A stretch of 32,963 bases of DNA from Eubacterium sp. (GTDB lineage Bacteria > Bacillota > Clostridia > Lachnospirales > Lachnospiraceae), in assembly GCA_017614395.1 (NCBI GenBank), contig JAGABX010000004.1, forward strand, positions 1 through 32,963, given 5' to 3'. Below are positions 3,758 through 32,963 of the stretch, piece after piece. Each line of letters begins with the position of its first letter. Position 1 is the stretch's first letter. The notes below the pieces were generated by a model, which saw nothing but the letters and a program-made list of their open reading frames with translations, was not told the DNA's origin and did no database searches. The position numbers were made by a program, and so were the translations under genes.

Positions 3758-3771
3758 GTAATAATCCTCCA

Positions 3772-3803: not shown

Positions 3804-3833
3804 ATGATTATTGCCTATAAAATAGGATTTGTT

Positions 3834-3905
3834 AAAACTTGCAAACATCCCAGAGCTATAATCGCCACCCGTGAGACGGAAAGCAGTTACGAGGTGATCA
3901 GTTGA
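3834..3905 (+). pseudogene. Scar of a deleted histidine kinase gene (promoter end joined to a bit of the ATPase domain)
   Basis: The 18 bases AAACTTGCAAACATCCCA at 3835-3852 are identical to 30010-30027, the promoter region of the intact kinase at 30050. Directly after, 3858-3905 reads IIATRETESSYEVIS and stop. This matches the HATPase stretch IATRETEEAYEVI of that kinase and IATRESDESFEVI of the kinase at 11219, and the DNA is similar too. The intervening ~1.7 kb of a kinase gene is missing. The simplest reading is a third paralogous kinase reduced to its two ends by internal deletion. Confidence 0.6.
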
Positions 3906-6942: not shown

Positions 6943-6955
6943 TCTATCCTCCCGT

Positions 6956-11202: not shown

Positions 11203-11218
11203 ATCTATTTTTCCTCCT

Positions 11219-12628
11219 TTATTCTTGCGCGGATTTCGGCAGGATAATGCGAACCTCGGTACCCTCTCCCGGAGTACTGTCATAGGTTATTTTTGCGTCA
11301 CACATATCCTGCAGTCGCTTCATCGTGTTCTCCCTGCCGACATGGGACCTGCCGTCGTCCTTTTTGATCTCGTTCGGATCAAACCCAACCCCGTCATCGG
11401 TAACGATCACCTCGAAACTCTCGTCCGACTCACGGGTGGCAATCGTCACGGTACCGCCGTCCTCCTTCATCCCCACGCCGTGCTTGATTGCGTTCTCTAC
11501 CAACGGCTGGATCGACAGGATCGGGATGAAAAAGTCCGTGGCCTGTATGTCAAATACGACATTCAGCTTGTCCTGAAATCGCATCTGCTCGATATAAACG
11601 TATTTTTTCAGATGTTCCAGTTCTTTGGAAAAAGGCACCGGACCGCTCTGCTTGAGAGCATCCATGTTCCCCCGCAGATAGTCGGAAAAAGCAACCGTGG
11701 CCTCGTAGGCCGTGTCCGGCTCCAGCTTGCACAGGATGGCGATAGAGGAAAGCGTATTGTATACAAAGTGCGGACGCATCTGACTGACCATCAGATTGAC
11801 CCTGGCCTCATACAGCTCTTTTTCAGTCTCCATCCGGAGCCGTTCATTTTTAGCAACAACCATTCCGTACAAAAGCAGCAATGAGATCATGGTTGACGCG
11901 AATCCGATATTTATATCGAAAAACGGAAGCAGGATCATGTCACAGATGATCGGAATCACCGCTGCAGTGGCAACGATCAGCCTGTCCTTCAGCTTGTTTT
12001 TCGTTAAAACTACGCTGATCAGAATGAAAAACAATGCTATACCATAGTAAATCGTGGGCCATAGATACAGCACAGCCGATCCCATCCAACCTGTCTCATC
12101 GTAAATAAAGTATACCGGCACCCACAGATTGAGTAAAACGGATGCAAGCGAGAACGCCAGCAACACATTCATCAGTATGGAAACAAATCGGCGAAAACGC
12201 TCATTCAGCCCCAGTATCGTGGATACAAAGTTCCACAGCAGGAACTGTTGGATAAATGTGCCGGCCAGATCGCAGGTATCGGCAGCGATAAACACAGCCG
12301 TGGGAATCCCACCCGCCAGCAGATGGTTGAGGCAGTAATCCGAGAAAAGCATCACGGATGAGAAAAACAGCAACAGAACAAAGGTCCTGGTGTACTCGGA
12401 AAAACCCTCCCTGTCCTGAATCAGCCAGAACAGCAATACCGTACAGATACACAGACTAACCACATCCACTCCGGTTGTAAAGGAGATCATGCTGTCCAGA
12501 TCCGGAACACCCCAGACCGCTATACCCACAATTGAAAGGATGGCAAACAGCAGTGATACCGCAAACATAAGTGGCATCACCCATCGTTGCCGTCTCCAAA
12601 AGCCTTTGATTCTATCTGCTAACTCCAT
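11219..12628 (-). CDS. LytS/YehU-type sensor histidine kinase with polytopic membrane sensor
   Basis: 469 residues from ATG 12628 (GAGG 6 nt upstream); a TTG at 12658 would overlap the regulator stop. The first ~260 residues hold about eight hydrophobic spans with short loops, resembling peptide-sensing kinases rather than ones with a large outer domain. The kinase core has QMRPHFVYN (His ~287), an N-box LVENAIKHG (~379) and DDGVGF. The HisKA-type region PF06580 and the HATPase belong to the LytS/AgrC-like branch. It should phosphorylate the response regulator encoded 26 bp upstream. From the kinase core on it is a close paralogue of the kinase at 30050, but the sensor half differs, so the two probably detect different signals through similar output. 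Confidence 0.93.
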   Translation of the reverse strand: MELADRIKGFWRRQRWVMPLMFAVSLLFAILSIVGIAVWGVPDLDSMISFTTGVDVVSLCICTVLLFWLIQDREGFSEYTRTFVLLLFFSSVMLFSDYCLNHLLAGGIPTAVFIAADTCDLAGTFIQQFLLWNFVSTILGLNERFRRFVSILMNVLLAFSLASVLLNLWVPVYFIYDETGWMGSAVLYLWPTIYYGIALFFILISVVLTKNKLKDRLIVATAAVIPIICDMILLPFFDINIGFASTMISLLLLYGMVVAKNERLRMETEKELYEARVNLMVSQMRPHFVYNTLSSIAILCKLEPDTAYEATVAFSDYLRGNMDALKQSGPVPFSKELEHLKKYVYIEQMRFQDKLNVVFDIQATDFFIPILSIQPLVENAIKHGVGMKEDGGTVTIATRESDESFEVIVTDDGVGFDPNEIKKDDGRSHVGRENTMKRLQDMCDAKITYDSTPGEGTEVRIILPKSAQE

Positions 12629-12654
12629 GAATACCTCGCTACTTTTATCGCATG

Positions 12655-13437
12655 TCAATAATCATCAAAGAAAAACTCTGCCCAATAGTACTGGCTCATA
12701 TACTCATTCTGGTAGGCATTGACAGCCCCGGCGTCCAGCTCGGCAAAGCGATAGTAGTCACAGTCGAGGACATCGACATTGACGGCCAGTGCGTTATAGC
12801 TGCGGGTGATGGCGGCCTCGGCGCCGATCTTTTTCAGGGAACTGATCAGTGATGTAATGGTTGTCTGGATCAGGTTCTGCTGCTTTTTATCATAGGGCGC
12901 ATCCTCAAACAGTGCGGCACAGATCTCCCTGGTCGTACATGAACTGCCGTGGCGGTGAACCAGATAGGCAAACACCTCCTTGCTGCGGCTGCGCTCAAAA
13001 TGGACATGTTCACCGTCCGGTGTAAACACATCAAAATTTCCAAAACACTGAACACGCAGCAATGCGTCCTTTTTCGGCACGATCGGGAACCGCAGGTCCT
13101 CGAGTTCCGCGGCAACCTTCTCTTTGGTTACCGGCTTCATGATGTAACCGGATGCCTTCAGATCCATCGCGTCACCCTTATATTCGGAAAACCCGGTAAC
13201 AAATATGATGTTCATTTTCGGGTTGATGCCCTTCAGCATCCGTGCCAGATCCACACCGTTCATGCCGCGCATGTGGATATCCAGCAGGGCGATATCACAG
13301 CCGTCATCCTCCGCTGACTTCAGCAGATCCGCCTGGCGCTCAAACACCTGCACATCGGCATCCGGTTTGGCTTCCTTCACGGCGAGTTCGACCATCTTGC
13401 GCATCAGCGGCTCGTCATCAATACACAGAATTCTCAT
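12655..13437 (-). CDS. Response regulator: receiver domain plus SARP/OmpR-like winged-helix output
   Basis: 260 residues. The start ATG 13437 has GGAAGGAGAG just upstream. The receiver (1-~120) keeps the acidic pair in CIDDEP, the phospho-acceptor Asp in ALLDIHMRGMNG and the Lys in GYIMKPV. Residues ~130-225 form a winged-helix domain of the SARP type (LLRVQCFGNFDVFTPDG, SRSKEVFAYLVHRHGSSCTTREI). The C-terminal ~35 residues (DCDYYRFAELDAGAVN...) are nearly identical in the paralogue at 32035. It is the first gene of the operon with the kinase, and its own promoter carries the TTGTACAGAT repeat, so autoregulation is likely. SARP/OmpR-fold proteins classically bind 11-bp direct repeats, matching the operators seen at 845, 3705 and 13492. 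Binding itself is inference. Confidence 0.93.
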   Translation of the reverse strand: MRILCIDDEPLMRKMVELAVKEAKPDADVQVFERQADLLKSAEDDGCDIALLDIHMRGMNGVDLARMLKGINPKMNIIFVTGFSEYKGDAMDLKASGYIMKPVTKEKVAAELEDLRFPIVPKKDALLRVQCFGNFDVFTPDGEHVHFERSRSKEVFAYLVHRHGSSCTTREICAALFEDAPYDKKQQNLIQTTITSLISSLKKIGAEAAITRSYNALAVNVDVLDCDYYRFAELDAGAVNAYQNEYMSQYYWAEFFFDDY

Positions 13438-13543: not shown

Positions 13544-14788
13544 TTATAAATAGGATGTACCAAACAACTCTTCATTTTTAAGATGATCTATAAGGTTAAC
13601 ATGCTTGATTCCATTTCGTTTCTGTAGCAGATAGTCTGTAGTCACTACATACTTATCATAATTGTCATTTATAGCCTCAAGTGCCCTATATTCGCGATCC
13701 TCTGTCTCCCTGCTCGAGAGAATAGTATAGGAAACCTGAACATAAGAGTAGTCTGACTCCGGACTTCGAAGTATGAAATCGCATTCAAGCTTTCCGATTC
13801 TTCCGACACTGACCGAATACCCCTCACTGCGCGCATACAAATATACGATATTTTCAAGAACAGGACCATAGTTGATCTGATTATTCGTATTCTCAGAAAA
13901 ATAAAACCCAAGATCCGACAAATAATACTTCTTTTCACCGGACAGTGATTTCTTTGACTTCAAATCAAATCTGGGACATTCGTACAGAATCTTCGCATCA
14001 CAAAGTACATTTACATATCGTGTCACCGTCGCTCTGGTGATAACAAGGCCGGATTTGTTTAGAGCATCATGCAGACTCTTAATACTCATCGGCGCGCCGA
14101 AATTATTGATCAAAAACCTTCGCATGCTCTCAAATGTTTCGGTATTCCGTATCTTTACCCTACGGCGAATATCCTTTTCAAATATTTCTCGAACAACCTC
14201 CTTGACATATATCTTTCTTGCTTCTGTGGAATCAAGCCTGACAGTCCTGGGAAAACCACCTTCCAGGATAAACTGATTCAACTCCTCCATCGGGTTTGGA
14301 TCGATATCGATATGGTAGAACTCCTTCATTCTCTCGTATTCATCAAAAGTAAGTGTATACATCTCAAATTCAATATATCTTCCGGTGAGCTTTGTCACCA
14401 GTTCACCACTGAGAAGATATGAATTTGAGCCGGTTATGAAGATCGACCATCCTCCCTCTGTACGAAATCCGTTTATGACCTCCTCAAATCCTTCTACATT
14501 CTGAATCTCATCTATAAACAAATACTTGAGCTCCGGACTCTGACAACAAGACTCGATCAACTCATCCAGCTGATCTGCTTTTTTGATGCTTCGATATCCT
14601 CTTTTATCCAGATCCAGATAAATAATACGCTCATCCGATACACCTTTCTGGCGAAGTTCTGTCGCTATGGTCTCCATAAGACTAGATTTACCACATCGCC
14701 TTACCCCGGTTATAACCTTGATCAGGTCATCCGTATCATAGAATGAACGAATTTTCCTGAGATATTTTTCTCGTTTATACAGTTTCAT
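13544..14788 (-). CDS. AAA ATPase of the DUF4143 (AAA_14) family
   Basis: 414 residues. The start ATG 14788 has GGAGGG 6 nt upstream. The N-terminal P-loop ATPase has Walker A GVRRCGKS (28-35), Walker B YLFIDEIQN (~89-97) and a sensor region FITGSNSYLL. The C-terminal half (~200-414) is the DUF4143 domain, with a restriction-enzyme-like look (KLECDFILRSPESDYSYVQVSY). These ATPases are common, often in several copies, in anaerobic bacteria and archaea; their biochemical role is not settled. It is a single-gene unit with its own promoter, and a large palindrome sits directly upstream of the -35 box. It is not functionally connected to its neighbours by sequence. Confidence 0.9.
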   Translation of the reverse strand: MKLYKREKYLRKIRSFYDTDDLIKVITGVRRCGKSSLMETIATELRQKGVSDERIIYLDLDKRGYRSIKKADQLDELIESCCQSPELKYLFIDEIQNVEGFEEVINGFRTEGGWSIFITGSNSYLLSGELVTKLTGRYIEFEMYTLTFDEYERMKEFYHIDIDPNPMEELNQFILEGGFPRTVRLDSTEARKIYVKEVVREIFEKDIRRRVKIRNTETFESMRRFLINNFGAPMSIKSLHDALNKSGLVITRATVTRYVNVLCDAKILYECPRFDLKSKKSLSGEKKYYLSDLGFYFSENTNNQINYGPVLENIVYLYARSEGYSVSVGRIGKLECDFILRSPESDYSYVQVSYTILSSRETEDREYRALEAINDNYDKYVVTTDYLLQKRNGIKHVNLIDHLKNEELFGTSYL

Positions 14789-20936: not shown

Positions 20937-21986
20937 CTAAGGATATCTTTGAACTATTTTTGAAAATCTGGGAAGCGTCAATTCCACACGTCCATACGTG
21001 GATGACTTCATTATCCCTTTTTTCTTTAAACGCTCCTGATATTTGGAGAATACAGATGATGTCATGGATAACAACTCACATGCTTCTTTAGTTTTGATTC
21101 CCTCGTCCGGAATAATCCTGACAACTCTCTGGTCTGTTTCAGATAAAGATTCCCATATCTTTCTATACGCGAAGTCGTCCAACATCTCGTCTAGTTTTGG
21201 CAAAATGTCTTCGAGTGTCTCGGATGCTTTTTTTTCAAAGAACAGCATTCCCAATAATTGAAATGCAAACGCGTACCCCTTTGTTAACTCCGATAATTCT
21301 TTCGCAGATTCCGGCGATAGATGGAGTAGCGACTCGTATTGATTGGTAATCTGAAATCCACTTAACCCGGATAACCGGATTTTCGGGCTTCTCAATAAAA
21401 ATGTCAAGGATTTATCATTCTGAACGGAATGAATATCTTCATATAATCCGGTCATGATGAGAAAAACCGGATACTCCTTGCGAACCAGTATTTGAAATTC
21501 ATTGCCAAAATCCCGCATATTCTGCCCGGAAGAAACCTCATCTATCGTAAATAAAACCTTTTTCTTTCGCTTAACAAGGGCGTTTAGCAGGCTTTCCATA
21601 ATACTTATGTTATCCTGAGCCAGAGACCTATCATTCCATTCCAGTTTTGTCCCTCCCAGAGAAAGTGACATCCCGGACGGTATCCACTGTTTGTGCGAAC
21701 GTACAATATCCGATAATCTGTTCGCGGACTCATCTAAAAGATCTCTTTGTGGTAACAGGTCTGCAACAACCCAATCTCCGGTCTTCTTCAGTTCATTTGC
21801 AATCGAGGTCATAAAGACTGTTTTTCCGCTTCCTCGGATTCCTTCAATCAGATACGTTTGAGATATTGGGTTGTTCCCGGAAAACGAATTAATAATCGTG
21901 TTAGTATCCTCGTATCTTGTAATAAAACTGGCAGGTGGTTTACCAAATGTCAGGGTGAACGGGTTCTCTTCCTTCATATCATTCAT
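20937..21986 (-). CDS. AAA ATPase (STAND/AAA_16-like) with C-terminal winged helix
   Basis: 349 residues. The start ATG 21986 has AAAGGAAGG directly upstream. Walker A is GIRGSGKT (49-56) and Walker B is KVLFTIDEVSS (~143-153). The ATPase region runs to ~235 and includes FLIMTGLYEDIHSV (sensor region). Helical residues lead to a C-terminal winged helix (~285-349: IKTKEACELLSMTSSVFSKY, then KGIMKSSTYGRVELTLPRF). The layout resembles ATPases that carry their own DNA-binding domain, found in defence or regulatory settings. It is transcribed alone from a near-consensus promoter, and its leader is filled with TTCGTA repeats that are a natural candidate target for autoregulation. No partner gene is adjacent apart from the small remnant downstream. 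Confidence 0.85.
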   Translation of the reverse strand: MNDMKEENPFTLTFGKPPASFITRYEDTNTIINSFSGNNPISQTYLIEGIRGSGKTVFMTSIANELKKTGDWVVADLLPQRDLLDESANRLSDIVRSHKQWIPSGMSLSLGGTKLEWNDRSLAQDNISIMESLLNALVKRKKKVLFTIDEVSSGQNMRDFGNEFQILVRKEYPVFLIMTGLYEDIHSVQNDKSLTFLLRSPKIRLSGLSGFQITNQYESLLHLSPESAKELSELTKGYAFAFQLLGMLFFEKKASETLEDILPKLDEMLDDFAYRKIWESLSETDQRVVRIIPDEGIKTKEACELLSMTSSVFSKYQERLKKKGIMKSSTYGRVELTLPRFSKIVQRYP

Positions 21987-22008
21987 AGCCTTCCTTTGCT
22001 TAAATCTC

Positions 22009-22091
22009 TTCGTAGTTCTTCGTAACTCGATATAGTTTCGTAACTCTTCGTAACTCCATGATGTCTTCGTAACCTTTCGTATCTCTTCGTA
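22009..22091 (-). repeat. Seven-copy TTCGTA (TACGAA) repeat array in the ATPase leader
   Basis: TTCGTA occurs at 22009, 22019, 22037, 22047, 22066, 22076 and 22086 on the plus strand. Spacings are 10, 18, 10, 19, 10 and 10 bp: pairs or triplets with a 10-bp period, roughly one helical turn, on one face of the DNA. The whole array lies between the predicted transcription start (~22085) and the ATPase start codon. It is either a regulator-binding array or an RNA-level control element. Confidence 0.8.
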
Positions 22092-22120
22092 AGTATAACA
22101 TGTTCAATTTTCCTTGTCAA
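22092..22120 (-). promoter_or_regulatory. Near-consensus sigma-A promoter of the AAA ATPase gene
   Basis: Minus strand TTGACA (22115-22120), 17 nt, TATACT (22092-22097). The transcription start is expected near 22085, giving a leader of about 100 nt. Confidence 0.8.
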
Positions 22121-22241: not shown

Positions 22242-22439
22242 GAATCCTTTTTGGCAAATGGCTCACAAATGGCTCATTTTTCTGTTACACGCGCCCGAAA
22301 TATACGATTTTTCAGGCTTTTTTCAAAATCCGCATATTCTGCCGTGGCATAGGTGAGATAGGAAATCGTTGCGAAGCCGATTTCCGTTATCGAAGCTATA
22401 CAGAGTAGATGGATAGGATTCGTATCATAGTTTCTTGTT
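22242..22439 (-). repeat. Intergenic element, copy A (downstream of the AbiE operon)
   Basis: This is the first of three same-direction copies (see 24796 and 26761). It shares a proximal block (22242), a direct repeat AAATGGCTC-ACAAATGGCTC (22257-22277) 15 bp further on, a central box with ATATACGATTTTTC, TGCCGTGGCA (22340-22349) 98 bp from the proximal block, and a distal TATCATA (22433-22439). The stretch between TGCCGTGGCA and TATCATA is 83 bp here, longer than in the other copies, and contains a small stem GGAAATCG/CGATTTCC. No ORF is evident. It is the most diverged copy. Confidence 0.5.
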
Positions 22440-22446
22440 ACCTTTC

Positions 22447-22480
22447 AAAAAAATGGTAGAAGCATAACGCTCCTACCATT
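22447..22480 (-). terminator. Rho-independent terminator of the AbiE-like operon
   Basis: Minus strand AATGGTAG (22473-22480) pairs with CTACCATT (22452-22459), with an inner AGC/GCT pair, and is followed by TTTTTTT (22447-22453). It lies about 40 bp after the last stop of the operon. Confidence 0.8.
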
Positions 22481-22520
22481 CTATCACAAGTTTCCAACGA
22501 GGGCAAGCAAAAATCCATCC

Positions 22521-22811
22521 CTACTCATACTCCTGAATAAGCCAATCGGCAACATCCTCATCATCCCAATCCGGATGATGAGCTATACAGTCAAGGATGG
22601 CATCAAAAAGGTCTTGAGATATCTTTGACTTATTGATGATCAATTCATCCGGGATTTCTCCATATAACCCTCGGACCACAGAAACTGTCATTTCGTATTT
22701 CCCAAGTTTCTTGTTTTCCTTATCTCTCATGAGTAAAGTCATAAACTCTGTCTCCTTTTCCACTCTGGTCGGCGCGAAACGGATGTCTATCGGACATCCC
22801 GCGCCCTCCAT
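22521..22811 (-). CDS. Small acidic protein of unknown function, third gene of the AbiE-like operon
   Basis: 96 residues from ATG 22811. ATG 22742 (residue 24, MTLLMRDKENKK) has a better ribosome site (AAGGAG 9 nt upstream) and may be the real start, giving 73 residues. The protein is rich in Asp/Glu near the end (HPDWDDEDVADWLIQEYE) with no membrane span. I do not recognise the family. It follows the AbiEii-like gene by 55 bp and precedes the terminator, so it probably belongs to the same transcript as an accessory component. Confidence 0.65.
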   Translation of the reverse strand: MEGAGCPIDIRFAPTRVEKETEFMTLLMRDKENKKLGKYEMTVSVVRGLYGEIPDELIINKSKISQDLFDAILDCIAHHPDWDDEDVADWLIQEYE

Positions 22812-22866
22812 TTCTCGCTCCCACGAACATCTGCTACATCTTCATCCATTCAAAGAATTCATAGAA

Positions 22867-23694
22867 TCAAATCATAGAAATCAATGCTTGTACTTGCTCG
22901 TATGCATCACGCCTGATAAACTCCGTCTCTTCTGCATCCGCTTCAACAAAGGATGAAACATCGACAGGTCCGGCATGACTCACACTTCCGAATTTTTCTA
23001 CGAGTTTTTCCTTCATATTGATGATAATCGGAGTGTTCCTGACATCTGAAAAGAGTTCTGCCAGTGCTGCAACTCCACCCGGATAATGCTTGATAAGAAA
23101 GTATATATCGTAGGCATCCTTAGCCTTCCCTCTTCCCATCGCTGCTGTTTTCATTACAAGATACGGAACAACCGCAATTACACTGACATTTGCAACGTCT
23201 ATTGCTCCGTCTGGTCTTGAAGTCTCAATCTTTACCTTCTGAGCTTCAAACTGAAATGCAAAATCCCCACCTGACGCCTTCAATGCTTTCAATCCCTGGA
23301 CATGTTGAGAGCGCTTCTTTTTCTGCGTCCCTCCGTACATTCCGGCCAAAATATCCACATCAACATCGTAAGAAACCGAATCAACAACAATTGTCTTTAT
23401 AAATGAAAAATATTTTTCCGGGTGTTCCCTATACCCATTGTTCATCAGGATTCTTGCCATTGTCTGATATCCGGAATCCTTGAGTGTCAGATGATTGATC
23501 AAAACATCCACATCGACACTGCCGATATGCCCCTCGCCCGGAAACATTAATTCTGGAACCCAACCGCCGACTATTCTGATTTCATCCTTGTACTCGCCAA
23601 ACAAATTGACAAGTTCAACCAACACGCGGTGTGCCGCTTCGGTCTGACCTGCGCTGTAGTCAGCACTGCTCTTTAATTCCTCATCTCGAATCAT
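22867..23694 (-). CDS. AbiEii-like nucleotidyltransferase (type IV toxin)
   Basis: 275 residues. It shows the nucleotidyltransferase fold typical of AbiEii/AbiGii toxins: VGGWVPELMFPGEGHIGSVD (about 42-61) containing the GG...GSxDxD catalytic pattern with DVDVLI, a further acidic strand VSYDVDVDILAG, and RGKAKDAYDIYFLIKHYP near residue 195. In this toxin family the enzyme acts on nucleotides or RNA and stops growth; toxin and antitoxin do not bind each other, and the antitoxin works as a repressor. The start (ATG 23694) overlaps the upstream antitoxin stop by 4 bp (ATGA), so the two are translationally coupled. All expected catalytic acids seem present. Confidence 0.83.
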   Translation of the reverse strand: MIRDEELKSSADYSAGQTEAAHRVLVELVNLFGEYKDEIRIVGGWVPELMFPGEGHIGSVDVDVLINHLTLKDSGYQTMARILMNNGYREHPEKYFSFIKTIVVDSVSYDVDVDILAGMYGGTQKKKRSQHVQGLKALKASGGDFAFQFEAQKVKIETSRPDGAIDVANVSVIAVVPYLVMKTAAMGRGKAKDAYDIYFLIKHYPGGVAALAELFSDVRNTPIIINMKEKLVEKFGSVSHAGPVDVSSFVEADAEETEFIRRDAYEQVQALISMI

Positions 23695-24716
23695 TTCAGT
23701 ATCTCCTTTTTCAAGATTGCCTCAGCCATCTCCTCTCCCCGTCCCTGCATTCTCATTAGATCAAAATAAACCTGTACCGGGGATACAACAGGCATTCCGT
23801 CCTTTTCTCTGATATCCACGAAAACATCATCATTATTTGCAATGAACAAAATGACATTTGCTCCCGAGTCGACTTCCTTCAGCCCGGCTTTTTCCATGAA
23901 ATCGTATGCGTTTTTAGCCGCTATCCACATGTGTACCTTCGTGTATCTGACAACAGGAGCATACCTTGCCCCTCCGGAAAAACCGGCAAGACCACCTTTA
24001 TAGTTATTCTCTACTAGTACCTCCGAGCATTTCTTCTCAATCTGAGATACATTATCCAAAGAATACGCGCTAACCATCTGTATATCTTCTGACAAAACAA
24101 CTGCACTCCACTCACGAAGAATACTCTCTGCGTCTGTGATCATAAAACCATCTCGCCCCATTTCTCCCCAGAGCTGATCGCATAGATACTCCTTGACACG
24201 TGATACCATTCCGATACTGCATCCGACTTTTATGGAAAGATTCTGAATCCTCCACCGAACTGATATATCTGCAAGCAATTCTCGAAGAATTTTTGATGTC
24301 ACAGCGGATGACGCTCGAAAGATACTCTTTACATTGTCTTCTTTTGGAAAAAGATTGGGATGCCCAATATCGGACAGATAGATAGTATCAAACGACACCA
24401 TGCAATTCCCTGAATAATCCAGATACCCCACTCCCAGCTTTTTGCATAGTTCAGCAGACGAAGGACTGATATAAGGAGCAACAATAACTCGATAGCAGGA
24501 TGTATCTTTTTCCGGGTGCGACACGATTGCATTTTCTATCCTTTTGGGATAACCCTGATCAAGAACAATCAGCTGAATGGCATGCTTTCCTTGCATTTCG
24601 ATAGTACCGTTGATTCGGTTCTCCGCTCCCTTTTTCAGCGAAATACTCTTTACAGCCGGAATCATATGTATTTTCTCTCGAAACAATTGTTCAGGTGTTT
24701 GCATCATCTGTTTCAC
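23691..24716 (-). CDS. AbiEi-like antitoxin with winged-helix domain
   Basis: 341 residues from GTG 24716, preceded by AAAGGCGGTGA; a TTG at 24734 would add six residues. The N-terminal part has a conserved-looking GVGYLDYSGNCMVSF (~115), like AbiEi-family antitoxins. A winged-helix region covers ~140-200 (VTSKILRELLADISVRWRIQ, then KVGCSIGMVSRVKEYL). The C-terminal part (GGLAGFSGGARYAPVVRYT, ANVILFIANNDDVFVDI) matches the antitoxin's second domain. AbiEi proteins repress their own operon and neutralise the toxin indirectly. It is first in the three-gene unit with its own promoter at 24747-24775. The family is assigned from motifs and pairing with the nucleotidyltransferase. Confidence 0.8.
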   Translation of the reverse strand: MKQMMQTPEQLFREKIHMIPAVKSISLKKGAENRINGTIEMQGKHAIQLIVLDQGYPKRIENAIVSHPEKDTSCYRVIVAPYISPSSAELCKKLGVGYLDYSGNCMVSFDTIYLSDIGHPNLFPKEDNVKSIFRASSAVTSKILRELLADISVRWRIQNLSIKVGCSIGMVSRVKEYLCDQLWGEMGRDGFMITDAESILREWSAVVLSEDIQMVSAYSLDNVSQIEKKCSEVLVENNYKGGLAGFSGGARYAPVVRYTKVHMWIAAKNAYDFMEKAGLKEVDSGANVILFIANNDDVFVDIREKDGMPVVSPVQVYFDLMRMQGRGEEMAEAILKKEILK

Positions 24717-24746
24717 TAAATCACCGCCTTTCAATGCTGTACTGAA

Positions 24747-24775
24747 AGTATATCATATAGTGAAACGATCGTCAA
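24747..24775 (-). promoter_or_regulatory. Promoter of the AbiE-like operon
   Basis: Minus strand TTGACG (24770-24775), 17 nt, TATACT (24747-24752), about 30 nt before the GTG start. The expected antitoxin operator was not resolved. Confidence 0.75.
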
Positions 24776-24795
24776 GAAAAATAGAAATAAATGTG

Positions 24796-24927
24796 GAGCC
24801 CCTTTTCGCGAAGTGGTTACAAAGTGGTTATTATTCGACTCTAAATCTGCCGGAAGTACCGTAAATCCGCTATTTTCACCCGTTTCGACAAGTCCTGCCG
24901 TGGCAAACAAAAAGAATTCTTATCATA
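24796..24927 (-). repeat. Intergenic element, copy B (between AbiE promoter and glycosylase gene)
   Basis: Blocks in order on the plus strand: GAGCCCC (24796), direct repeat AAGTGGTTAC-AAAGTGGTTA (24811-24830), GTAAATCCGCTAT (24860), TGCCGTGGCA (24896-24905, 100 bp after GAGCCCC), GAATTC, and TATCATA (24921-24927). The stop codon of the glycosylase gene (24923-24925) lies inside TATCATA. No ORF. Confidence 0.6.
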
Positions 24928-25402
24928 GCACTATTTCCCCTTTCCATCCCTCTATAAGCCTTTCCGTACTCCATGCCGCATTCGCCGGACTTGTTGATGG
25001 AAGACAGATTGCCTGCCTTCCGATTAACGGAAGAGTATATTTTTCATAATACTTCAGCGCTGTCTTTCCATTCACAAATATCCCCTTGATATCCGCATCA
25101 TCAAGAATAATACTCAAATCATTTACCGTCACATTCCGGATGCTGGAGTCTGAAGACCCCTCTATCTCACAGGAACAAATCACATCCCAGAGTGCGATGT
25201 GATTACGATGAAGGAAAGCGCTCTTATCCTCGACCGTTCCCGGCTCATCGTCATTAAAGACGGATGCGACAACTTTCCAAAAACGGTTACGCGGGTGACC
25301 ATAATAGAATCCTTCCTCTCTGGATTTCACAGACGGAAAACTCCCGAGTATCAATATTTCTGATTCCTCATCATATAGCGGTGAAAACGGATGAATCATC
25401 AT
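24923..25402 (-). CDS. Hypoxanthine-DNA glycosylase-like protein (UDG superfamily, family 6)
   Basis: 159 residues. The N-terminal motif ILILGSFPSVKSREEGFYYG followed by HPRNRFWKV, and the C-terminal LPSTSPANA, are those of the DNA-deoxyinosine (hypoxanthine) glycosylase family. It removes deaminated adenine from DNA, giving an abasic site for base-excision repair in the cytoplasm. The length is usual for the family. The start ATG 25402 lies 9 bp after the SEC-C microprotein stop, so the two share a transcript from the promoter at 25621-25649. The stop is embedded in the conserved TATCATA of element B. Confidence 0.85.
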   Translation of the reverse strand: MMIHPFSPLYDEESEILILGSFPSVKSREEGFYYGHPRNRFWKVVASVFNDDEPGTVEDKSAFLHRNHIALWDVICSCEIEGSSDSSIRNVTVNDLSIILDDADIKGIFVNGKTALKYYEKYTLPLIGRQAICLPSTSPANAAWSTERLIEGWKGEIVL

Positions 25403-25411
25403 ATAAACACA

Positions 25412-25534
25412 TCACCTTCCACAACAAAACTTAAACTTCTTCCCAGAACCGCAATGGCAAGGTGCATTGCGCGATATCTTCAGCCATAACAATTTCTCCT
25501 CACTCTGCAGTTTTTTCATTGGAATCTGCTTCAT
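25412..25534 (-). CDS. SEC-C motif zinc-binding microprotein
   Basis: 40 residues, too short for most gene callers. The ATG at 25534 has AGGGA 8 nt upstream. The C-terminal half is a complete SEC-C motif, RNAPCHCGSGKKFKFCC plus GR, with ligands Cys26, Cys28, Cys37 and Cys38. This motif occurs at the end of SecA and in many small or fused proteins, where it binds zinc. The N-terminal half is a charged helix (MKQIPMKKLQSEEKLLWLKI). It directly precedes the glycosylase gene in the same transcript. It could be an adaptor for that enzyme or a domain detached from it; the role is unknown. Confidence 0.7.
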   Translation of the reverse strand: MKQIPMKKLQSEEKLLWLKISRNAPCHCGSGKKFKFCCGR

Positions 25535-25620
25535 ATAGCATTCCCTAAAATGCAATCCTCCTAAAAATGCATGCTTCTTATTCCCATGGTTTTATCTTCC
25601 ATGACCCTAATGACAATACC

Positions 25621-25649
25621 ATTATACAGCATACTTCCACTTGAGTAAA
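25621..25649 (-). promoter_or_regulatory. Promoter of the SEC-C/glycosylase transcript
   Basis: Minus strand TTTACT (25644-25649), 17 nt, TATAAT (25621-25626), leaving a leader of about 80 nt. Confidence 0.7.
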
Positions 25650-25885
25650 GAAAAAAAGTGTTTTCCTGTCGGACGACAAACAGCAAATCCGGTTTTCGTT
25701 CGACAAATACATTGTACCTCAGGGAAAATGAGAAAATCTGCCTTAGAACGACAGTGAAAGAGATTTACCTGTCTTTATACGACAGTGAGACGGGAAGGCT
25801 GGGGAGTACATTGCAAAGTTGCAGTCTACTCCCGGAGCGCCTGATCGCGCAAAATTCTTAGAATCAATCAGAAATATCGTAGAAA
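25650..25885. other. Non-coding gap with repeated small hairpins
   Basis: No convincing gene. On the minus strand TGTCG recurs in four small stem-like units (plus-strand CGACA at 25674, 25701, 25749, 25780), for example CTGTC-GTATAAA-GACAG. A longer stem GGGAGTA/TACTCCC with an inner TGCAA/TTGCA lies at 25802-25833. The two best units (around 25749 and 25780) are 31 bp apart and share about two thirds of their bases. Confidence 0.35.
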
Positions 25886-25918
25886 GAAAAAACACCCGAG
25901 GATCAACGTCCCCGGGTG
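25886..25918 (-). terminator. Rho-independent terminator of the Rpn-like gene
   Basis: Minus strand CACCCGGGG (25910-25918) pairs with CCTCGGGTG (25893-25901) across an 8-nt loop with one mismatch, followed by TTTTTTC. It lies about 30 bp after the Rpn stop. Confidence 0.75.
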
Positions 25919-25949
25919 CAACAACCGCAATTCAATACAGGAGAGTCTG

Positions 25950-26570
25950 TCAAGCACTCTGCTCTCCAAGTATTTCATTCACTTGCTCCATTGTCAAATT
26001 AAGAGCTTCTACAATTTTCTCTTTTGAAACACCAACAGCATAAAAACTTCTGACATCTTCAAGCATTTTTTTCAATTCAGATTCTCTCCGAACTTCATCC
26101 ATTACCTTGCACATAGTCTGCACCCCCTCGTCCGTTTCTTTGAAATACCTCGGTTTCTCCGCTAATTTCTTAAAATACATATCATCGGGATTCGTACATC
26201 TGAAATCATGCATCAGCTTACCCAACTCAGTCTCGCTGTCCTCATTTGCACCATTGACATAGACGATATGTTCCTCATCACCAAACGGGTCATTATCCAA
26301 CTCAACGATATGCCGTTCTATATGATATATCGGTAAATCGCCGCCTAAAACATCGTTCTCTGTAATAAAAATCACATATGTTTCTGGCAATTCATCGAAA
26401 TCCTGTCCAGATTTCAAAATACTTGAATCCATAACACTGGAATGATATCTGGCACGCTTTCTGCCCGCACCGCGGTCGTCTCTTTGAATCTCTATATTTA
26501 TCTGACGTCCGTTTGCATCCTTAGCTTTGACATCAAGCCACACATCACGCCCCGACAGGCTTTTAATCAA
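25950..26570 (-). CDS. Rpn-family PD-(D/E)XK nuclease/putative transposase, 5'-truncated
   Basis: 206 residues from the first available start (TTG 26570). The sequence matches the middle and C-terminus of Rpn-type proteins: GRDVWLDVKAKDANGRQINI with EIQRDD (catalytic D...EXQ), KRARYHSSVMDSSIL, LPETYVIFITENDVLGG, and the C-terminal FYAVGVSKEKIVEALNLTMEQ. Homologous-looking codons continue in frame upstream to about 26640 (EILRIILDDKSIVVTESKTQ) without a start codon. The usual N-terminus, with its conserved Asp and Phe/Lys residues, is missing. Intact family members have roughly 300 residues and act as recombination-promoting endonucleases. This copy is therefore likely inactive, cut near element C. 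It has its own terminator. Confidence 0.75.
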   Translation of the reverse strand: MIKSLSGRDVWLDVKAKDANGRQINIEIQRDDRGAGRKRARYHSSVMDSSILKSGQDFDELPETYVIFITENDVLGGDLPIYHIERHIVELDNDPFGDEEHIVYVNGANEDSETELGKLMHDFRCTNPDDMYFKKLAEKPRYFKETDEGVQTMCKVMDEVRRESELKKMLEDVRSFYAVGVSKEKIVEALNLTMEQVNEILGEQSA

Positions 26571-26760
26571 ATACTGCGTTTTTGACTCCGTAACAACGAT
26601 ACTCTTATCGTCAAGGATAATGCGCAGGATTTCAAGTATATAATAACAGATAATAGGAAAAAAATCAACTGATATTTGTCAATCCAGATATCTACAGCAG
26701 TAGAATGATTTATAGAACAAGGAGTCCGTTTCTGATCCTCGTCAAGAAAAAAGCATTTTT
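26571..26760 (-). other. Remains of the Rpn 5' region between the Rpn frame and element C
   Basis: From 26571 to about 26640 the minus strand continues the Rpn reading frame without a start. From there to 26760 no homology, promoter or ribosome site was recognised. The break between Rpn coding sequence and element C lies here. Confidence 0.4.
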
Positions 26761-26912
26761 GAGCCCCGGGCGGTGTGTTGGGACAAAATTGGGTTAAAAA
26801 TTTCATCAAATCGTCTGTGAGGCCCGTAAAATCGCTATTCTTTTTCTGTCAGGATTTCTTGCCGTGGCAGATGAAAAGAATTCGCACAGGCGATTTCTGG
26901 ATTTTTATCATA
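26761..26912 (-). repeat. Intergenic element, copy C (upstream of the Rpn remnant)
   Basis: Plus-strand blocks: GAGCCCC (26761), direct repeat TTGGGACAAAATTGGGTTA (26778-26796), GTAAAATCGCTAT (26826), TGCCGTGGCA (26860-26869, 99 bp after GAGCCCC), GAATTC (26878), and TATCATA (26906-26912). As in copy B, the stop codon of the preceding gene (26908-26910) lies within TATCATA. No ORF. Confidence 0.6.
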
Positions 26913-27144
26913 ATGTTGCATCAACAACATCAAAGCTTTTATCCGTATACGAGTACTTAAGCGCTTGATCTGTATCCTCGACAGCACCACCTATAACCGC
27001 CGCATAAAGTGCCGCTTCATACCAAGACCCCTTAATAACAAAAAGGCTAAATTCAGGATGTTCCCTGCTAAATTGATAAAGATTCACTACTTCTCCATTG
27101 TAATATAATAGTTTCGAGTCTTTGATTTCACTAGTAGAATCCAT
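26908..27144 (-). CDS. Small protein of unknown function
   Basis: 78 residues. The ATG at 27144 is well supported by GAGAGGAG 8 nt upstream. The protein is soluble-looking, with an aromatic N-terminal half (KLLYYNGEVVNLYQFSREHP), a central SLFVIKGSWYEAALYAAVIGG, and a C-terminal DTDQALKYSYTDKSFDVVDA. I do not recognise a family. It follows the desulfurase-like gene by 50 bp on the same strand and may be co-transcribed. Its stop falls inside the TATCATA block of element C. Confidence 0.65.
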   Translation of the reverse strand: MDSTSEIKDSKLLYYNGEVVNLYQFSREHPEFSLFVIKGSWYEAALYAAVIGGAVEDTDQALKYSYTDKSFDVVDATL

Positions 27145-29953: not shown

Positions 29954-29982
29954 ATTATACATAATGTGCTCAAATTTCGCAA
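29954..29982 (-). promoter_or_regulatory. Promoter of the desulfurase-like gene
   Basis: Minus strand TTGCGA (29977-29982), 17 nt, TATAAT (29954-29959), about 32 nt before the start codon. Confidence 0.75.
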
Positions 29983-30017
29983 GTTTTTTGTGAACGCCCT
30001 ATTTAAAACAAACTTGC
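29979..30017. promoter_or_regulatory. Inverted repeat overlapping both -35 boxes of the divergent promoters
   Basis: GCAAGTTT (29979-29986) is mirrored as AAACTTGC (30010-30017). Each arm covers the -35 box of one of the two divergent promoters, so a single bound regulator could control both. One arm with flanking bases is also present in the kinase-gene relic at 3835. Confidence 0.55.
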
Positions 30018-30042
30018 AAACATCCCAAGGCTGTGATAAAAT
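30014..30042 (+). promoter_or_regulatory. Promoter of the second kinase/regulator operon, predicted leaderless
   Basis: TTGCAA (30014-30019), 17 nt, TAAAAT (30037-30042). Transcription would start near 30049-30050, where the kinase ATG lies, and no ribosome site precedes that ATG, so a leaderless mRNA is predicted. Confidence 0.55.
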
Positions 30043-30049
30043 ACAGAAC

Positions 30050-32020
30050 ATGATAAAAATACTGGGTGGCAGGGTTTATTCTGCCGTGGGAATAGGCATC
30101 CTTCTGTTGGGTCTTACAGGACTCATTGTTTTTGGTATGCAATACTTTCTGGGGATGTCATTACTGCCACCACAGAACGCCCTGACAGAAGGGCGCTTTT
30201 CCGTAGACGACGGTCCCTGGAAACAGGTAAACGGGGACGGCACGATCCCTGACTCATTCCATACTCTCACCTGCAAATGGACCTTACCGGAGTATTCACT
30301 TGAGACATACAGCAATCTAAATATTTCATCTAAAAATGTCTGGTATGAACTGCGCGGCTCGTCGGGACAGCTTTTGGCAGAGCATAACTATCAAAGCAAG
30401 CAGGCTCTGCTGGATAAATCTTATGATTTATATCGAAACGCCGCACGTGACATTGGGGATTCATCCGATCCCATGCTCGACAGAAACTATTTCGACAAGA
30501 ACTTTCCCATCGGCGATGCCCCGTTCATGTATATGCCGGATACACCGGGATACAAAACGACTGTCACATCGATTGATGAGCTGGTACGTTTGGGCTTAAC
30601 TGAAAACGAAAGCTTAACACTGACCGTGACCAATCCGTATTCTGACTCAGAGATGCGTTTTTCCGAATGCTTCGACATCACACTGAGCGGTGACAACGGG
30701 TACTACCTCCGTTTCTTCAGTGATGTGTTGCCTGTATTACTGGTATTTGTTCTGATCTGCTTTTTCGGCATCTTTTTATTCCCGATCGCGGGCTTTATCC
30801 TTGGAAAGATCGACTATCGCTACCTGACCTTCGGTCTGCTCAGCTTTTTTTGGGGTCTGTTTATGATCGGTCAAAGGATCGGAAATTATATAAATCTCTG
30901 GATTTATGATCCCACTGTTTGCATGGCGTTAGAGGTTCTGCTGAACTACATCCTAATCGCCGCCATCCTGTTCTATCTCAAATCAAATCTGAAAAATGCC
31001 GTCCCCCGGATGCTTGCAAACCTGACGATAACCGTCTTTATACTGACCTCGGCCGTTGCTGCCATCCTGCATTTTTCCCACATCCGTGACCTGTATGCAA
31101 CCTCTCGTTATATGTATATCGTGACGGCGGTCGGCGTACTTATCCTGGTGATATTACTGATCAATGAGACCGGAAAACAGGCCTTGACTGAACGAAAACG
31201 GTCGTTACTGTTTCTCATATCCTGGATCCCGCTGGCACTGACAATCCTCGTCGACGCGGTCAATCACTATGTTTATTTTACAAGAATTCATTTTTACTAC
31301 TTCGGATTAGCAGTCACCATGTTTTTCCAGATATTCCGAATGATACTTGATCTCAAGCGGCAATACAAGGAGGCAATCCGTTATCAGCAGATACAGAAGG
31401 AACTGTATGAGGCGCGTGTCGGGGTTATGGTCAGCCAGATCCAGCCGCATTTCATGTACAACGCCCTGACCTCCATCGCGATGATGTGTTCGATTGATCC
31501 GGACACGGCGAAGGATGCGACCATCACCTTCGCAAAATACCTGCGCGGCAACATGGATTCCCTGAAACAGACGGCACCCGTTCCGTTCGAACAGGAGCTG
31601 GAGCACCTGAAAAAGTATTTATATATAGAAAAACTCCGTTTTCAGGACAAACTGAACATCGAATACGATATTCAAACAACAGCGTTCTATCTGCCGTTAC
31701 TCAGTATCCAGCCTCTGGTGGAGAATGCCGTCAAACATGGGGTGGGCATGAAAAAGAAAGGCGGCACCGTCACCATCGCCACCCGCGAGACGGAGGAGGC
31801 TTACGAAGTGATCATCTCGGATGACGGCGTAGGCTTTGACACGAATGCGGAAAAACCGGACGACGGGCGGTCACATGTCGGGATGGAGAATACAAAACGC
31901 CGGCTGAAAGAACTGTGTGACGGCGAGGTCGTGATCGAAAGTACGGTCGATGTCGGGACGACGGCAACCGTAGTTCTGCCGAAGAGCGGGCAGCAGAATG
32001 CGAATGCCGAAGGCGAATGA
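30050..32020 (+). CDS. Sensor histidine kinase with extracellular domain and 7TM (7TMR-DISM-like) region
   Basis: 656 residues from ATG 30050; an upstream in-frame ATG at 29966 would begin inside the promoter. A membrane span at ~13-38 is followed by an extracellular beta-rich domain (~40-220: RFSVDDGPWKQVNGDG, KNVWYELRGSSGQLLAEHN), about seven spans (~222-430) and the LytS-type kinase core: MVSQIQPHFMYN (His467), N-box LVENAVKHG, and DDGVGF. The arrangement resembles 7TMR-DISM receptors that sense small extracellular ligands. It should phosphorylate the regulator encoded 14 bp downstream. The kinase core is strongly similar to that of 11219-12628 while the sensors differ. A relic of a third such gene lies at 3834-3905. 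Confidence 0.92.
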   Translation: MIKILGGRVYSAVGIGILLLGLTGLIVFGMQYFLGMSLLPPQNALTEGRFSVDDGPWKQVNGDGTIPDSFHTLTCKWTLPEYSLETYSNLNISSKNVWYELRGSSGQLLAEHNYQSKQALLDKSYDLYRNAARDIGDSSDPMLDRNYFDKNFPIGDAPFMYMPDTPGYKTTVTSIDELVRLGLTENESLTLTVTNPYSDSEMRFSECFDITLSGDNGYYLRFFSDVLPVLLVFVLICFFGIFLFPIAGFILGKIDYRYLTFGLLSFFWGLFMIGQRIGNYINLWIYDPTVCMALEVLLNYILIAAILFYLKSNLKNAVPRMLANLTITVFILTSAVAAILHFSHIRDLYATSRYMYIVTAVGVLILVILLINETGKQALTERKRSLLFLISWIPLALTILVDAVNHYVYFTRIHFYYFGLAVTMFFQIFRMILDLKRQYKEAIRYQQIQKELYEARVGVMVSQIQPHFMYNALTSIAMMCSIDPDTAKDATITFAKYLRGNMDSLKQTAPVPFEQELEHLKKYLYIEKLRFQDKLNIEYDIQTTAFYLPLLSIQPLVENAVKHGVGMKKKGGTVTIATRETEEAYEVIISDDGVGFDTNAEKPDDGRSHVGMENTKRRLKELCDGEVVIESTVDVGTTATVVLPKSGQQNANAEGE

Positions 32021-32034
32021 AAAAGGAGGAGTCT

Positions 32035-32817
32035 ATGCGGATACTATGTCTGGATGATGAACCATTGGCTTTACAGATGCTTGAAACCAGTGTAAAAAAA
32101 GCAAAACCGGATGCGGAGGTCGTTCCATTCGATGATCAGGACGAACTGATCGCGGATGCAAAGAAAAACGGGTGCGATGTCGCTTTTCTCGATATACATA
32201 TGCGTGGGATGAATGGTGTCGAGGTGGCCAAAAACCTCAAGGAGATCAATCCGAAGATGAACCTCATCTTTGTGACCGGCTTCTCCGAGTATAAAGGCGA
32301 CGCGATGGACATACGCGCCAGCGGGTACATCATGAAGCCCGTTACGGATGAGGAAGTGGCGAGTGAACTCGAAAACCTGCGCTATGAAATCATTCCGAAG
32401 AAAAATGCCCTGTTGCGCGTGCAGTGTTTTGGAAATTTCGACGTATTCACACCGGACGGGGAGCCGGTACACTTCGAGCGCAGCCGGGCCAAAGAGATTT
32501 TCGCCTATCTGGTACACCGCCATGGGAGTTCCTGCACAACACGCGAGATTGCAGCCGCCCTGTTTGAGGACGAGCCCTACGATAAAAAGCAACAGAGTTA
32601 TCTCCAGACGCTGATCGCGGCTATGAACAAGAGTCTGAAAAAGATCGGCGCCGCCGATGCCATCCGGAAAAGCTACAATGCCCTCTCCGTCAATGTCGAT
32701 GTGCTGGATTGCGATTACTATCGTTTTGCCGAGCTGGATGCCGGCGCCGTAAACTCCTATCAGAATGAATACATGAGCCAGTATTACTGGGCCGAATTCT
32801 TCTTTGATGACTACTGA
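32035..32817 (+). CDS. Response regulator, receiver plus SARP/OmpR-like winged helix (paralogue)
   Basis: 260 residues from ATG 32035, which has AAAGGAGGA 4 nt upstream and matches the start of the paralogue (MRILC.DDEP); an ATG at 32017 overlapping the kinase stop would add six residues. The receiver keeps LDDEP, FLDIHMRGMNG and GYIMKPV. The output domain (~130-225) has LLRVQCFGNFDVFTPDG and SRAKEIFAYLVHRHG, almost unchanged from the regulator at 12655-13437. The C-terminal 35 residues differ at one position. Because the output domains are so alike, the two regulators may recognise the same TTGTACAGAT repeats. No such repeat occurs at this operon's own promoter. A terminator follows. Confidence 0.93.
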   Translation: MRILCLDDEPLALQMLETSVKKAKPDAEVVPFDDQDELIADAKKNGCDVAFLDIHMRGMNGVEVAKNLKEINPKMNLIFVTGFSEYKGDAMDIRASGYIMKPVTDEEVASELENLRYEIIPKKNALLRVQCFGNFDVFTPDGEPVHFERSRAKEIFAYLVHRHGSSCTTREIAAALFEDEPYDKKQQSYLQTLIAAMNKSLKKIGAADAIRKSYNALSVNVDVLDCDYYRFAELDAGAVNSYQNEYMSQYYWAEFFFDDY

Positions 32818-32829
32818 AAAAAAAATCAC

Positions 32830-32870
32830 AACCTTAAACATACGAAAAATAGCACTTTTTAGGTTTTTTT
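32830..32870 (+). terminator. Rho-independent terminator of the second kinase/regulator operon
   Basis: AACCTTAAA (32830-32838) pairs with TTTAGGTT (32858-32865) with one bulged T, an inner AAAA/TTTT pair, and a T-run to 32870. It is AT-rich but well placed 12 bp after the stop. From 32871 to the window end no gene is visible. Confidence 0.6.
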
Positions 32871-32963
32871 CAAAAAAATCTGAAAATGTGTTTTTTTTTG
32901 TTGTTATTCTGTTGTAGTCCTTTTGGTATGATGGTCTCAACAAAGAAAGATAGCCGCCGAAGA

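What the first reader, a model, noticed from the sequence alone, without database searches (positions are those of the whole stretch)
22242..26912. Three direct copies of a ~110-bp element bound defence-type gene modules like a cassette array
At 22242, 24796 and 26761 the same ordered blocks occur: GAGCCCC-like start, a paired direct repeat (TGGYT.ACAAA.TGGYT.A) 15-17 bp later, a box near GTAAATCCGCTAT, then TGCCGTGGCA at 98, 100 and 99 bp, and a final TATCATA. In copies B and C the stop codon of the preceding gene lies inside TATCATA. The copies flank the AbiE operon and the glycosylase/Rpn module. Paired direct repeats next to a short inverted core resemble arm and core sites of a tyrosine recombinase, so these may be recombination sites or ends of a small mobile unit. 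No recombinase is in the window. I know of no described element with this layout.
Basis: partly seen in the sequence, partly recalled or inferred. Interest (0 to 1): 0.8.

Follow-up and report, generated by a model that had tools for sequence, protein, structure and literature searches.

The report
Stacked integration scars flanking defence genes
The three repeated elements are leftover docking sites of mobile DNA that inserts at the start of one conserved phosphatase gene, and the genes between them, partly of anti-phage type, look like cargo of successive insertions that lost their own integrase.

Summary
The three copies are real (pairwise z 5.8 to 8.1). They are attachment-site junctions of integrative elements whose Tn916/Tn1549-type integrase targets the 5' end of the low-molecular-weight protein tyrosine phosphatase (PTP) gene. 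On the minus strand, TATCATA...TGCCGTGGCA is the PTP start, ATG...TGCCACGGCA; the paired repeat is an 11-bp-period arm site about 62 bp away. Such an integrase sits directly upstream of PTP elsewhere in this genome. Among 80 named relatives, PTP lies just behind the integrase in 66 and a displaced PTP start in 9 more. The 11-bp period occurs in 32 of 50 displaced sites and 0 of 76 PTP controls. Integrase-side ends joined to either PTP or a foreign arm place the crossover at the end of TGCCACGGCA. Integrase-less stacks recur in other genera, often with AbiE, restriction or similar cargo. The window's units lack the integrase-side pair and two of three sites are interrupted, so I favour serial insertion and decay over active shuffling. 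The stack is not shown to lie at PTP. CIME accretion is known; the target and the defence stacks appear new.

The parts
22258..22279 (-). Arm-type paired direct repeat of junction A (11-bp period)
   Evidence: sequence; period test
22340..22349 (-). Core of junction A, TGCCACGGCA on the minus strand
22350..22407 (.). Interruption between the core and the displaced PTP start in A (contains a GGAAATCG...CGATTTCC inverted repeat); the C85 copy has it too
22408..22428 (-). Displaced PTP start in A (ATGATACGAATCCTATCCATC)
22441..22489 (-). Remnant of an integrase-side end: 84% like the region at and just upstream of the integrase start on contig C118; the integrase gene itself is missing
22429..24812 (-). 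Integrase-less unit A-B (AbiE-type operon)
22521..22811 (-). Small cargo gene, 96 aa, no Pfam or PADLOC match
22867..23694 (-). AbiEii-like gene, 275 aa (PADLOC AbiEii, E 4.6e-5; no Pfam match)
23691..24734 (-). AbiEi-type antitoxin gene, 347 aa (PF09952, E 9.8e-8; no PADLOC match)
24813..24834 (-). Arm-type paired direct repeat of junction B
24896..24926 (-). Core plus uninterrupted displaced PTP start of junction B (MIRILFVCHGR); overlaps the stop of the upstream gene as ATGA
24927..26777 (-). Integrase-less unit B-C (UDG-like and PDDEXK_2 genes)
24923..25402 (-). Uracil-DNA-glycosylase-superfamily gene, 159 aa (PF03167, E 3e-12)
25950..26570 (-). PDDEXK_2 (Rpn/transposase-like nuclease) gene, 206 aa (PF12784, E 1.3e-12)
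26778..26799 (-). Arm-type paired direct repeat of junction C
26860..26911 (-). Core and displaced PTP start of junction C, interrupted by about 16 bp; 26899-26921 (the far part of the start and 10 bases beyond) is identical to the PTP start region on contig C118
26908..27144 (-). 78-aa gene whose TGA stop overlaps the displaced ATG as ATGA

Best explanation
Each copy is a hybrid attachment site. Integrative elements with a Tn916/Tn1549-type tyrosine integrase recombine at the codons for C-H-G in the P-loop at the start of the LMW-PTP gene (TGCCACGGCA). On integration the element supplies a new upstream region and start codon to PTP and pushes the old start (ATG...TGCCACGGCA) to its far end. 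There it sits beside that element's arm repeats (11-bp period, about 62 bp from the core). A later element that integrates at the same core stacks next to the previous one. Elements then lose the integrase but keep cargo and the far-end junction. The window holds three such junctions (A, B, C) with different arm sequences. They bound two small integrase-less units, one with an AbiE-type operon and one with a UDG-like and a PDDEXK_2 gene. Shown by sequence comparison: the site anatomy, the integrase family, the PTP target, the crossover position, and the recurrence of stacked units. Inferred: the order of events, that decay (not shuffling) made the small units, and that the cargo was kept for defence.
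For: Own genome: the PTP gene has an integrase (PF02920 E 1.8e-25, PF00589 E 1.2e-29; PDB: Tn1549 Int E 2.7e-82, Tn916 Int N-domain E 1.9e-13) directly upstream on the same strand. 62 genomes of genus and order: 5 of 28 PF02920 hits sit directly upstream of PTP, one more (G006, L262) has a displaced PTP start behind it. Named genomes: 66 of 80 related integrases have the PTP motif 176 to 704 bp behind the match; 9 of the other 14 have a displaced PTP start there by the pattern (7 by the stricter test; L147 and L155 are the weaker two), 2 ran off the contig, 3 have neither. Displaced-start pattern in 69 of 397 family genomes and 67 of 334 genera, against 2 genomes for the reversed control; all 20 stretches fetched from these hits held a displaced start. 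11-bp period in 32 of 50 displaced sites; at most 5 at any other period from 5 to 24; 0 of 76 PTP-coding controls; shuffle mean 1.2, maximum 7. Integrase-side pair in 76 of 82 cases, 68 with a 12-bp period. The arm unit matches between both ends in 9 of 9 elements against 14 of 72 cross pairings, permutation p 0.0003. The same 9.58-kb element (99.3%) lies in two species with unrelated flanks upstream of the displaced start. In 10 of 10 listed pairs of a PTP site and a displaced site with similar integrase-side ends, similarity stops at the last base of TGCCACGGCA, while 5 PTP-PTP pairs run 7 to 16 bases further (two of the loci, L143 and L214, are the same contig). Stacks elsewhere: L212 (5 sites), L213, L216, L221. 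A's flank resembles the integrase promoter region, with no integrase.
Against: The window contig does not contain PTP, so the stack is not shown to lie at the PTP locus; a profile of the start and core found no other site in the window than B and C, and A only by its core. The integrase in this genome has an arm unit (TATCACAAA) that matches none of A, B or C, so it is not shown to be their cognate. 18 of 50 displaced sites lack a clear 11-bp pair; some of these may be decayed or false. The two copies of the 9.58-kb element already differ about 100 bp before the PTP start, so that pair maps the crossover on the arm side only. 7 of 15 integrase-less units still have an integrase-side pair of 8 of 9 or better, though not of their own arm unit. 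Excision or movement was not observed, and no empty site in a close strain was available. L118, L131 and L175, and most PF02920 integrases of the genus-and-order set, have no PTP behind them.
Confidence: 0.85

Rival explanations
1. Active integron-like cassette array: the small integrase-less units are themselves mobile and are exchanged in trans by PTP-clade integrases acting on their cores and arms.
For: Units are small (1.7 to 7.2 kb) with few genes; 38 of 43 ORFs of 75 aa or more in 13 such units outside the window lie on the strand of the PTP start; stacked units recur in several genera; 7 of 15 units keep some integrase-side pair; relatives of the AbiEi unit of L212 lie beside a displaced site in G113 (L238) and G200 (L249) and beside PTP in G349 (L242).
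Against: 8 of 15 units, both window units among them, lack an integrase-side pair that 76 of 82 integrase-bearing elements have, and in none of 15 is there better than a 7-of-9 match to its own arm unit (only 7 of the 15 have a clear arm unit to compare). Sites A and C are interrupted. Of 11 fetched relatives of the L212 AbiEi unit, 8 show no recognisable core within the fetched stretch.
Confidence: 0.12
2. Integron gene cassettes: the copies are attC sites.
For: Same-strand genes, each separated by a ~110-bp repeat with a short inverted core.
Against: No excess single-strand folding on either strand of A, B or C (DNA parameters, z -0.49 to +2.69), and the core is PTP coding sequence joined to 11-bp direct repeats in relatives. 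Integron integrase was not searched for separately.
Confidence: 0.01
3. Regulatory element or structured RNA (operator, terminator or riboswitch) shared by defence operons.
For: Paired direct repeats resemble an operator, and beyond the arm of B and of C lies TTGACG, a possible -35 box.
Against: No Rfam match in the window at gathering thresholds, no stable fold; the same arrangement sits next to integrases and PTP starts in other genera, with arm units that differ between elements and match at both ends of one element.
Confidence: 0.02

Closest known systems
CIME (cis-mobilizable element) accretion next to ICE/IME (PMC5704250, passages read)
   Same: Elements that lost integration and transfer genes but keep att sites, stacked by site-specific integration at one gene end.
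   Different: Units here are very small, often carry defence-type genes, several are stacked, and the window units lack the integrase-side arm pair. The target is the PTP start.
dusA-specific genomic islands (PMC4482086, passages read)
   Same: Integration at the 5' end of a conserved gene; the island supplies a new 5' end and the old one is displaced.
   Different: Different target gene; the integrases were not compared here, and the word 'tandem' does not occur in that paper's held text.
Tn916/Tn1549 integrases (IntTn916 subgroup; PMC8138268 and PMC5871717, passages read)
   Same: Arm-binding domain PF02920 plus catalytic domain; own integrase matches the Tn1549 Int structure at E 2.7e-82; a Tn1549-type integrase on plasmid pMG2200 has TTTACTACT twice, 12 bp apart, behind it (that it is Tn1549-type is my reading).
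   Different: Tn916 and Tn1549 insert into AT-rich DNA without strict specificity (passage in PMC8138268); the clade here is tied to PTP and separates from the Tn1549-type rows in a tree of 66 rows.

Membership tests
IntTn916-subgroup integrative element | Integrase with Tn916-type arm-binding domain and tyrosine recombinase catalytic domain | tested here: met
   C118 integrase: PF02920 E 1.8e-25, PF00589 E 1.2e-29. It lies on another contig than the window; none was found in the window.
IntTn916-subgroup integrative element | Arm-type direct repeats at both element ends | tested here: inconclusive
   Arm-side pair present in A, B and C; integrase-side pair missing in A-B and B-C. Both present in integrase-bearing relatives.
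PTP-specific integrase clade | PTP start is the target | tested here: met
   66 of 80 have PTP directly behind the integrase, 9 more a displaced PTP start; crossover at the end of TGCCACGGCA.
CIME | Bounded by attL and attR | tested here: inconclusive
   Both units are bounded by cores with a displaced PTP start, but sites A and C are interrupted and the integrase-side arms are gone.
CIME | No integrase or conjugation genes | tested here: met
   No integrase-profile hit in A-C; the Pfam matches there are AbiEi, UDG and PDDEXK_2 only. No dedicated search for conjugation genes was made.
CIME | Mobilised in cis by a neighbouring element | not testable with these tools
   Needs an excision or transfer assay.
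Integron cassette array | attC sites with strong single-strand fold | tested here: not met
   z -0.49 to +2.69 for A, B, C on both strands.
Integron cassette array | IntI integrase | not tested
   No separate IntI search. Of the five PF00589 matches in the genome only the C118 one was classified.

The most novel reading that the evidence does not exclude
A second, integron-like system for stockpiling defence genes in gut Clostridia: PTP-clade Tn916-type integrases recognise a shared core in a conserved phosphatase gene plus element-specific arm 'codes', and stacked integrase-less units are still moved in trans by integrases whose arm code fits, so that the phosphatase locus acts as a loading dock for anti-phage genes.
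Probability: 0.12. Interest if true: 0.85.

Novelty: new variant of a known kind. Interest (0 to 1): 0.62.

Why it matters
It identifies the start of a conserved phosphatase gene as a widespread integration hotspot in gut Clostridia and gives an exact signature (ATG...TGCCACGGCA followed at about 62 bp by an 11-bp-period pair) for finding element ends without their integrase. Such ends delimit small modules that are often defence-type, so they could be mined for new anti-phage systems. The matching arm units at both ends make arm specificity in a large Gram-positive integrase subgroup directly testable.

Tried and rejected
attC/integron reading: no excess folding. Structured RNA: no Rfam match at gathering thresholds in the window. 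Bare TGCCGTGGCA search: 21 exact matches in the genome (8 for the reversed control), of which 4 are element copies and 1 the PTP gene by eye; the rest look like chance, so the 10-mer alone is not diagnostic. An early alignment call held a dummy 3-base second row and was useless. Window AbiEi protein in 145 relatives: 4 genomes with a match including its own, at 31 to 43% identity in the other three, none with a recognisable core in the fetched stretch; this shows patchiness but not whole-module exchange in this species. Search for a second TATCACA pair to close the C118 element: only the known pair was found. Two faecal phage-collection records with such integrases (L256, L257) were checked for circular ends: no terminal overlap. 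Literature: searches found no paper with the terms; one search listed 15 of 1,621 and one search listed 3; none of those listed is on PTP as a target by its title or shown abstract. This covers only open-licence PMC papers. Defence enrichment was not measured against a genome background. The comparison used queries taken from the units themselves: AbiEi-like hits 3 inside 15 integrase-less units (55 kb) and 2 outside (2.0 Mb), both of these close to a displaced site; AAA_14-type hits 2 inside and 3 outside, one of them (window 13544-14788) with no site nearby.

I also widened the relatives of the L212 AbiEi unit to 11.
Full report
Observation. TGCCGTGGCA falls at 22340, 24896 and 26860 and TATCAT at 22423, 24921 and 26906. 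The cargo genes are on the minus strand, so the element is best read on that strand.

What the core is. In relatives, a pattern made of TGCCGTGGCA and the next 12 bases (up to 2 mismatches) hit 30 of 99 genomes, with no hit for the reversed control. The majority of hits were the first codons of an intact gene, M-I-K-I-L-F-I-C-H-G-N-I-C-R, the P-loop of a low-molecular-weight protein tyrosine phosphatase (own copy PF01451 E 4.1e-35). In six other loci (L028, L031, L035, L037, L046, L054) the same start was followed not by PTP but by other DNA, in five of them with a paired repeat, as in the window; about five further hits looked like chance. So A, B and C are displaced PTP starts joined to an arm.

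The integrase. In the window's own genome the PTP gene (contig C118) has directly upstream, on the same strand, a 426-aa integrase with the Tn916-type arm-binding domain and the tyrosine recombinase domain; its best PDB matches are Tn1549 Int and, for the N-terminal part, Tn916 Int. In 62 genomes (own, 37 of the genus, 24 of the order), 5 of 28 PF02920 hits sit directly upstream of PTP, and a sixth (L262) has a displaced PTP start behind it. The PTP motif lies 176 to 704 bp behind the integrase match in 66 of the 80. In 9 of the other 14 (L104, L117, L143, L147, L155, L168, L170, L173, L177) a displaced PTP start lies there instead by the pattern; the stricter test accepts 7 of these (not L147 and L155). 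L171 and L180 ran off the contig; L118, L131 and L175 had neither directly behind. In a tree of 66 integrase rows (those outside L102-L181 longer than 300 aa, all non-PTP rows and a third of the PTP rows within it; 62 different) one group of 49 rows (support 100/99) holds all 31 PTP rows and 9 of 10 displaced-start rows; Tn1549-type rows fall outside (midpoint root). One displaced-start row (L218) falls outside, and 9 rows without a recognised site fall inside.

The arms. In 50 displaced sites that share no 25-mer (A and its 93%-alike C85 copy both count; a few are doubtful sites), a tandem pair with an 11-bp period occurs in 32, against at most 5 for any other period from 5 to 24, 0 of 76 PTP-coding controls, and a shuffle mean of 1.2, maximum 7. 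In 27 of the 32 it starts 60 to 66 bp from the core; in A, B and C at 64, 66 and 61 bp. On the integrase side a pair of 8 of 9 or better is found in 76 of 82 cases, 68 of them with a 12-bp period; random sequence of like length gave 5.6% (two contigs are counted twice, as L065/L159 and L068/L179). In 9 elements with both ends in hand (L179 dropped as a copy of L068) a 7-base unit is identical at both ends in 9 of 9, against 14 of 72 cross pairings (permutation p 0.0003). So the core is shared by all elements and the arm unit is particular to each. That the arms correspond to Tn916 DR2 repeats is recalled; an integrase of the Tn1549 kind on plasmid pMG2200 has TTTACTACT twice behind it.

The crossover. 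Two species carry the same 9.58-kb element (99.3% identical); upstream of the displaced start their flanks are unrelated, and unbroken identity begins right after TGCCAYGGCW. On the PTP side these two copies already differ about 100 bp before the start, so they map the arm side only. For the other side, sites with similar integrase-side ends were compared: in 10 of 10 listed pairs of a PTP site and a displaced site the similarity stops at the last base of TGCCACGGCA, while 5 PTP-PTP pairs run on for 7 to 16 bases and one displaced pair for 2 (the listing kept pairs of 88% or more whose match ends near the core, and L143 and L214 are the same contig). Alignments of L162/L177, L162/L168, L117/L141 and L143/L146 show the abrupt change from PTP to a foreign arm. 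These comparisons also show how stacks arise: an integrase-side end joined to another element's arm.

Stacks and cargo. A displaced-start pattern is present in 69 of 397 genomes of the family, 67 of 334 genera, against 2 genomes for the reversed control; all 20 stretches fetched from these hits held a displaced start. Of 141 sequences scanned, 47 show at least one site that the script called displaced (a few, such as L064, are likely chance, and in the window the script sees B only because A and C are interrupted). Stacks with no intact integrase between sites occur in L212 (five sites), L213, L215, L216, L217 and L221, and single units next to PTP in L062, L063 and L223 (insertion-sequence genes are also present in L215 and L217). 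Pfam on 30 of the 43 ORFs listed for these 13 units found AbiEi antitoxins (L212, L213, L221), GmrSD (L213), Mrr-like, Schlafen-type helicase with GIY-YIG, and MazG-like (L212), AAA_14/DUF4143 (L212, L223), a reverse transcriptase (L216), YhcG nuclease (L221), type I restriction-modification parts (L215), an Eco57I-type methylase (L221), a Schlafen AlbA domain (L217) and Fic (L062). L063 holds a leucine-rich-repeat protein and the first L212 unit an integrase fragment plus a protein without a match, so not all are defence-like. Nine of the 30 had no family match. Unit A-B has the AbiE-type pair. Unit B-C has a UDG-superfamily and a PDDEXK_2 protein without a PADLOC match, so its defence role is a guess. 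38 of the 43 ORFs lie on the strand of the PTP start, and 29 of the 30 that were scanned. No background rate of defence genes was measured.

Mobile or fossil. Of 15 integrase-less units (2 in the window, 13 elsewhere), 8 have no integrase-side pair of 8 of 9 or better, A-B and B-C among them; 7 have one (L212 first and fourth unit, L213, L215, L216, L221 first unit, L223), against 7% expected in random sequence of that length. None of the 15 has better than a 7-of-9 match to its own arm unit, but only 7 of them have a clear arm unit to compare. So some units may be chimeras of two elements, with the integrase-side remnant of one and the arm of another (inference). To the right of A, 50 bp match the start region of the C118 integrase, with the integrase missing. 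A and C are interrupted. This fits loss of the integrase after insertion. The ATGA overlaps at B and C suggest that cargo genes had become coupled to PTP while that junction was the active gene start (inference). I give 0.85 to the attachment-site and accretion reading as stated and 0.12 to ongoing exchange of single units.

Known and new. Accretion and CIMEs (PMC5704250), 5'-end replacement (dusA islands, PMC4482086) and site-specific clusters within the IntTn916 subgroup (PMC8138268) are known; I read passages of these, not the whole texts. The word phosphatase does not occur in the held main texts of PMC8138268, PMC6907783 and PMC5704250. Searches listed no paper on PTP as a target or on such stacks; one search listed only 15 of 1,621. 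I call it a new variant of a known kind.

Limits. The genome is in 151 contigs, the window contig lacks PTP, the C118 integrase has an arm unit unlike those of A, B and C, and no strain comparison within the species was possible.

Noticed in passing
L072 (own contig C85) 570-2144: A thiol-activated-cytolysin (PF01289) gene lies just left of a fourth junction, 93% like A, on a 3.9-kb contig.
   Followed up: no
window 11219-13437 and 29966-32817: Two inverted paralogous histidine-kinase/response-regulator pairs; the window's right end (31373-32963) is 87% like contig C85, which continues into the cytolysin gene and an A-type junction.
   Followed up: partly
window 13544-14788: AAA_14/DUF4143 protein (PADLOC candidate PDC-S01, E 4e-136), the same kind as cargo in L212 and L223, but with no recognisable junction nearby.
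   Followed up: partly
window 22350-22407 and 26883-26898: Sites A and C are interrupted between core and start; both inserts hold a CGATTTC(C/T) stretch. Origin unexplained.
   Followed up: no
window 879-11283: Three M13-type peptidase paralogues, two with Big_2 domains, in one cluster.
   Followed up: no
window 22008-22103: Degenerate TTCGTAACTC tandem repeats upstream of the AAA ATPase gene (20937-21986).
   Followed up: no
L066 334-1818: A 494-aa gene sits between a displaced PTP start and a truncated integrase, so cargo can also lie on the integrase side.
   Followed up: no
L138, minus strand near 15906 and 16622: Two displaced starts about 0.7 kb apart, opposite to the local integrase: possibly a very small unit.
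   Followed up: no
integrase-less units L212 first unit, L215, L221 first unit: A 12-bp-period pair remains on the integrase side but its unit differs from the unit's own arm, as if two elements had fused by deletion.
   Followed up: partly
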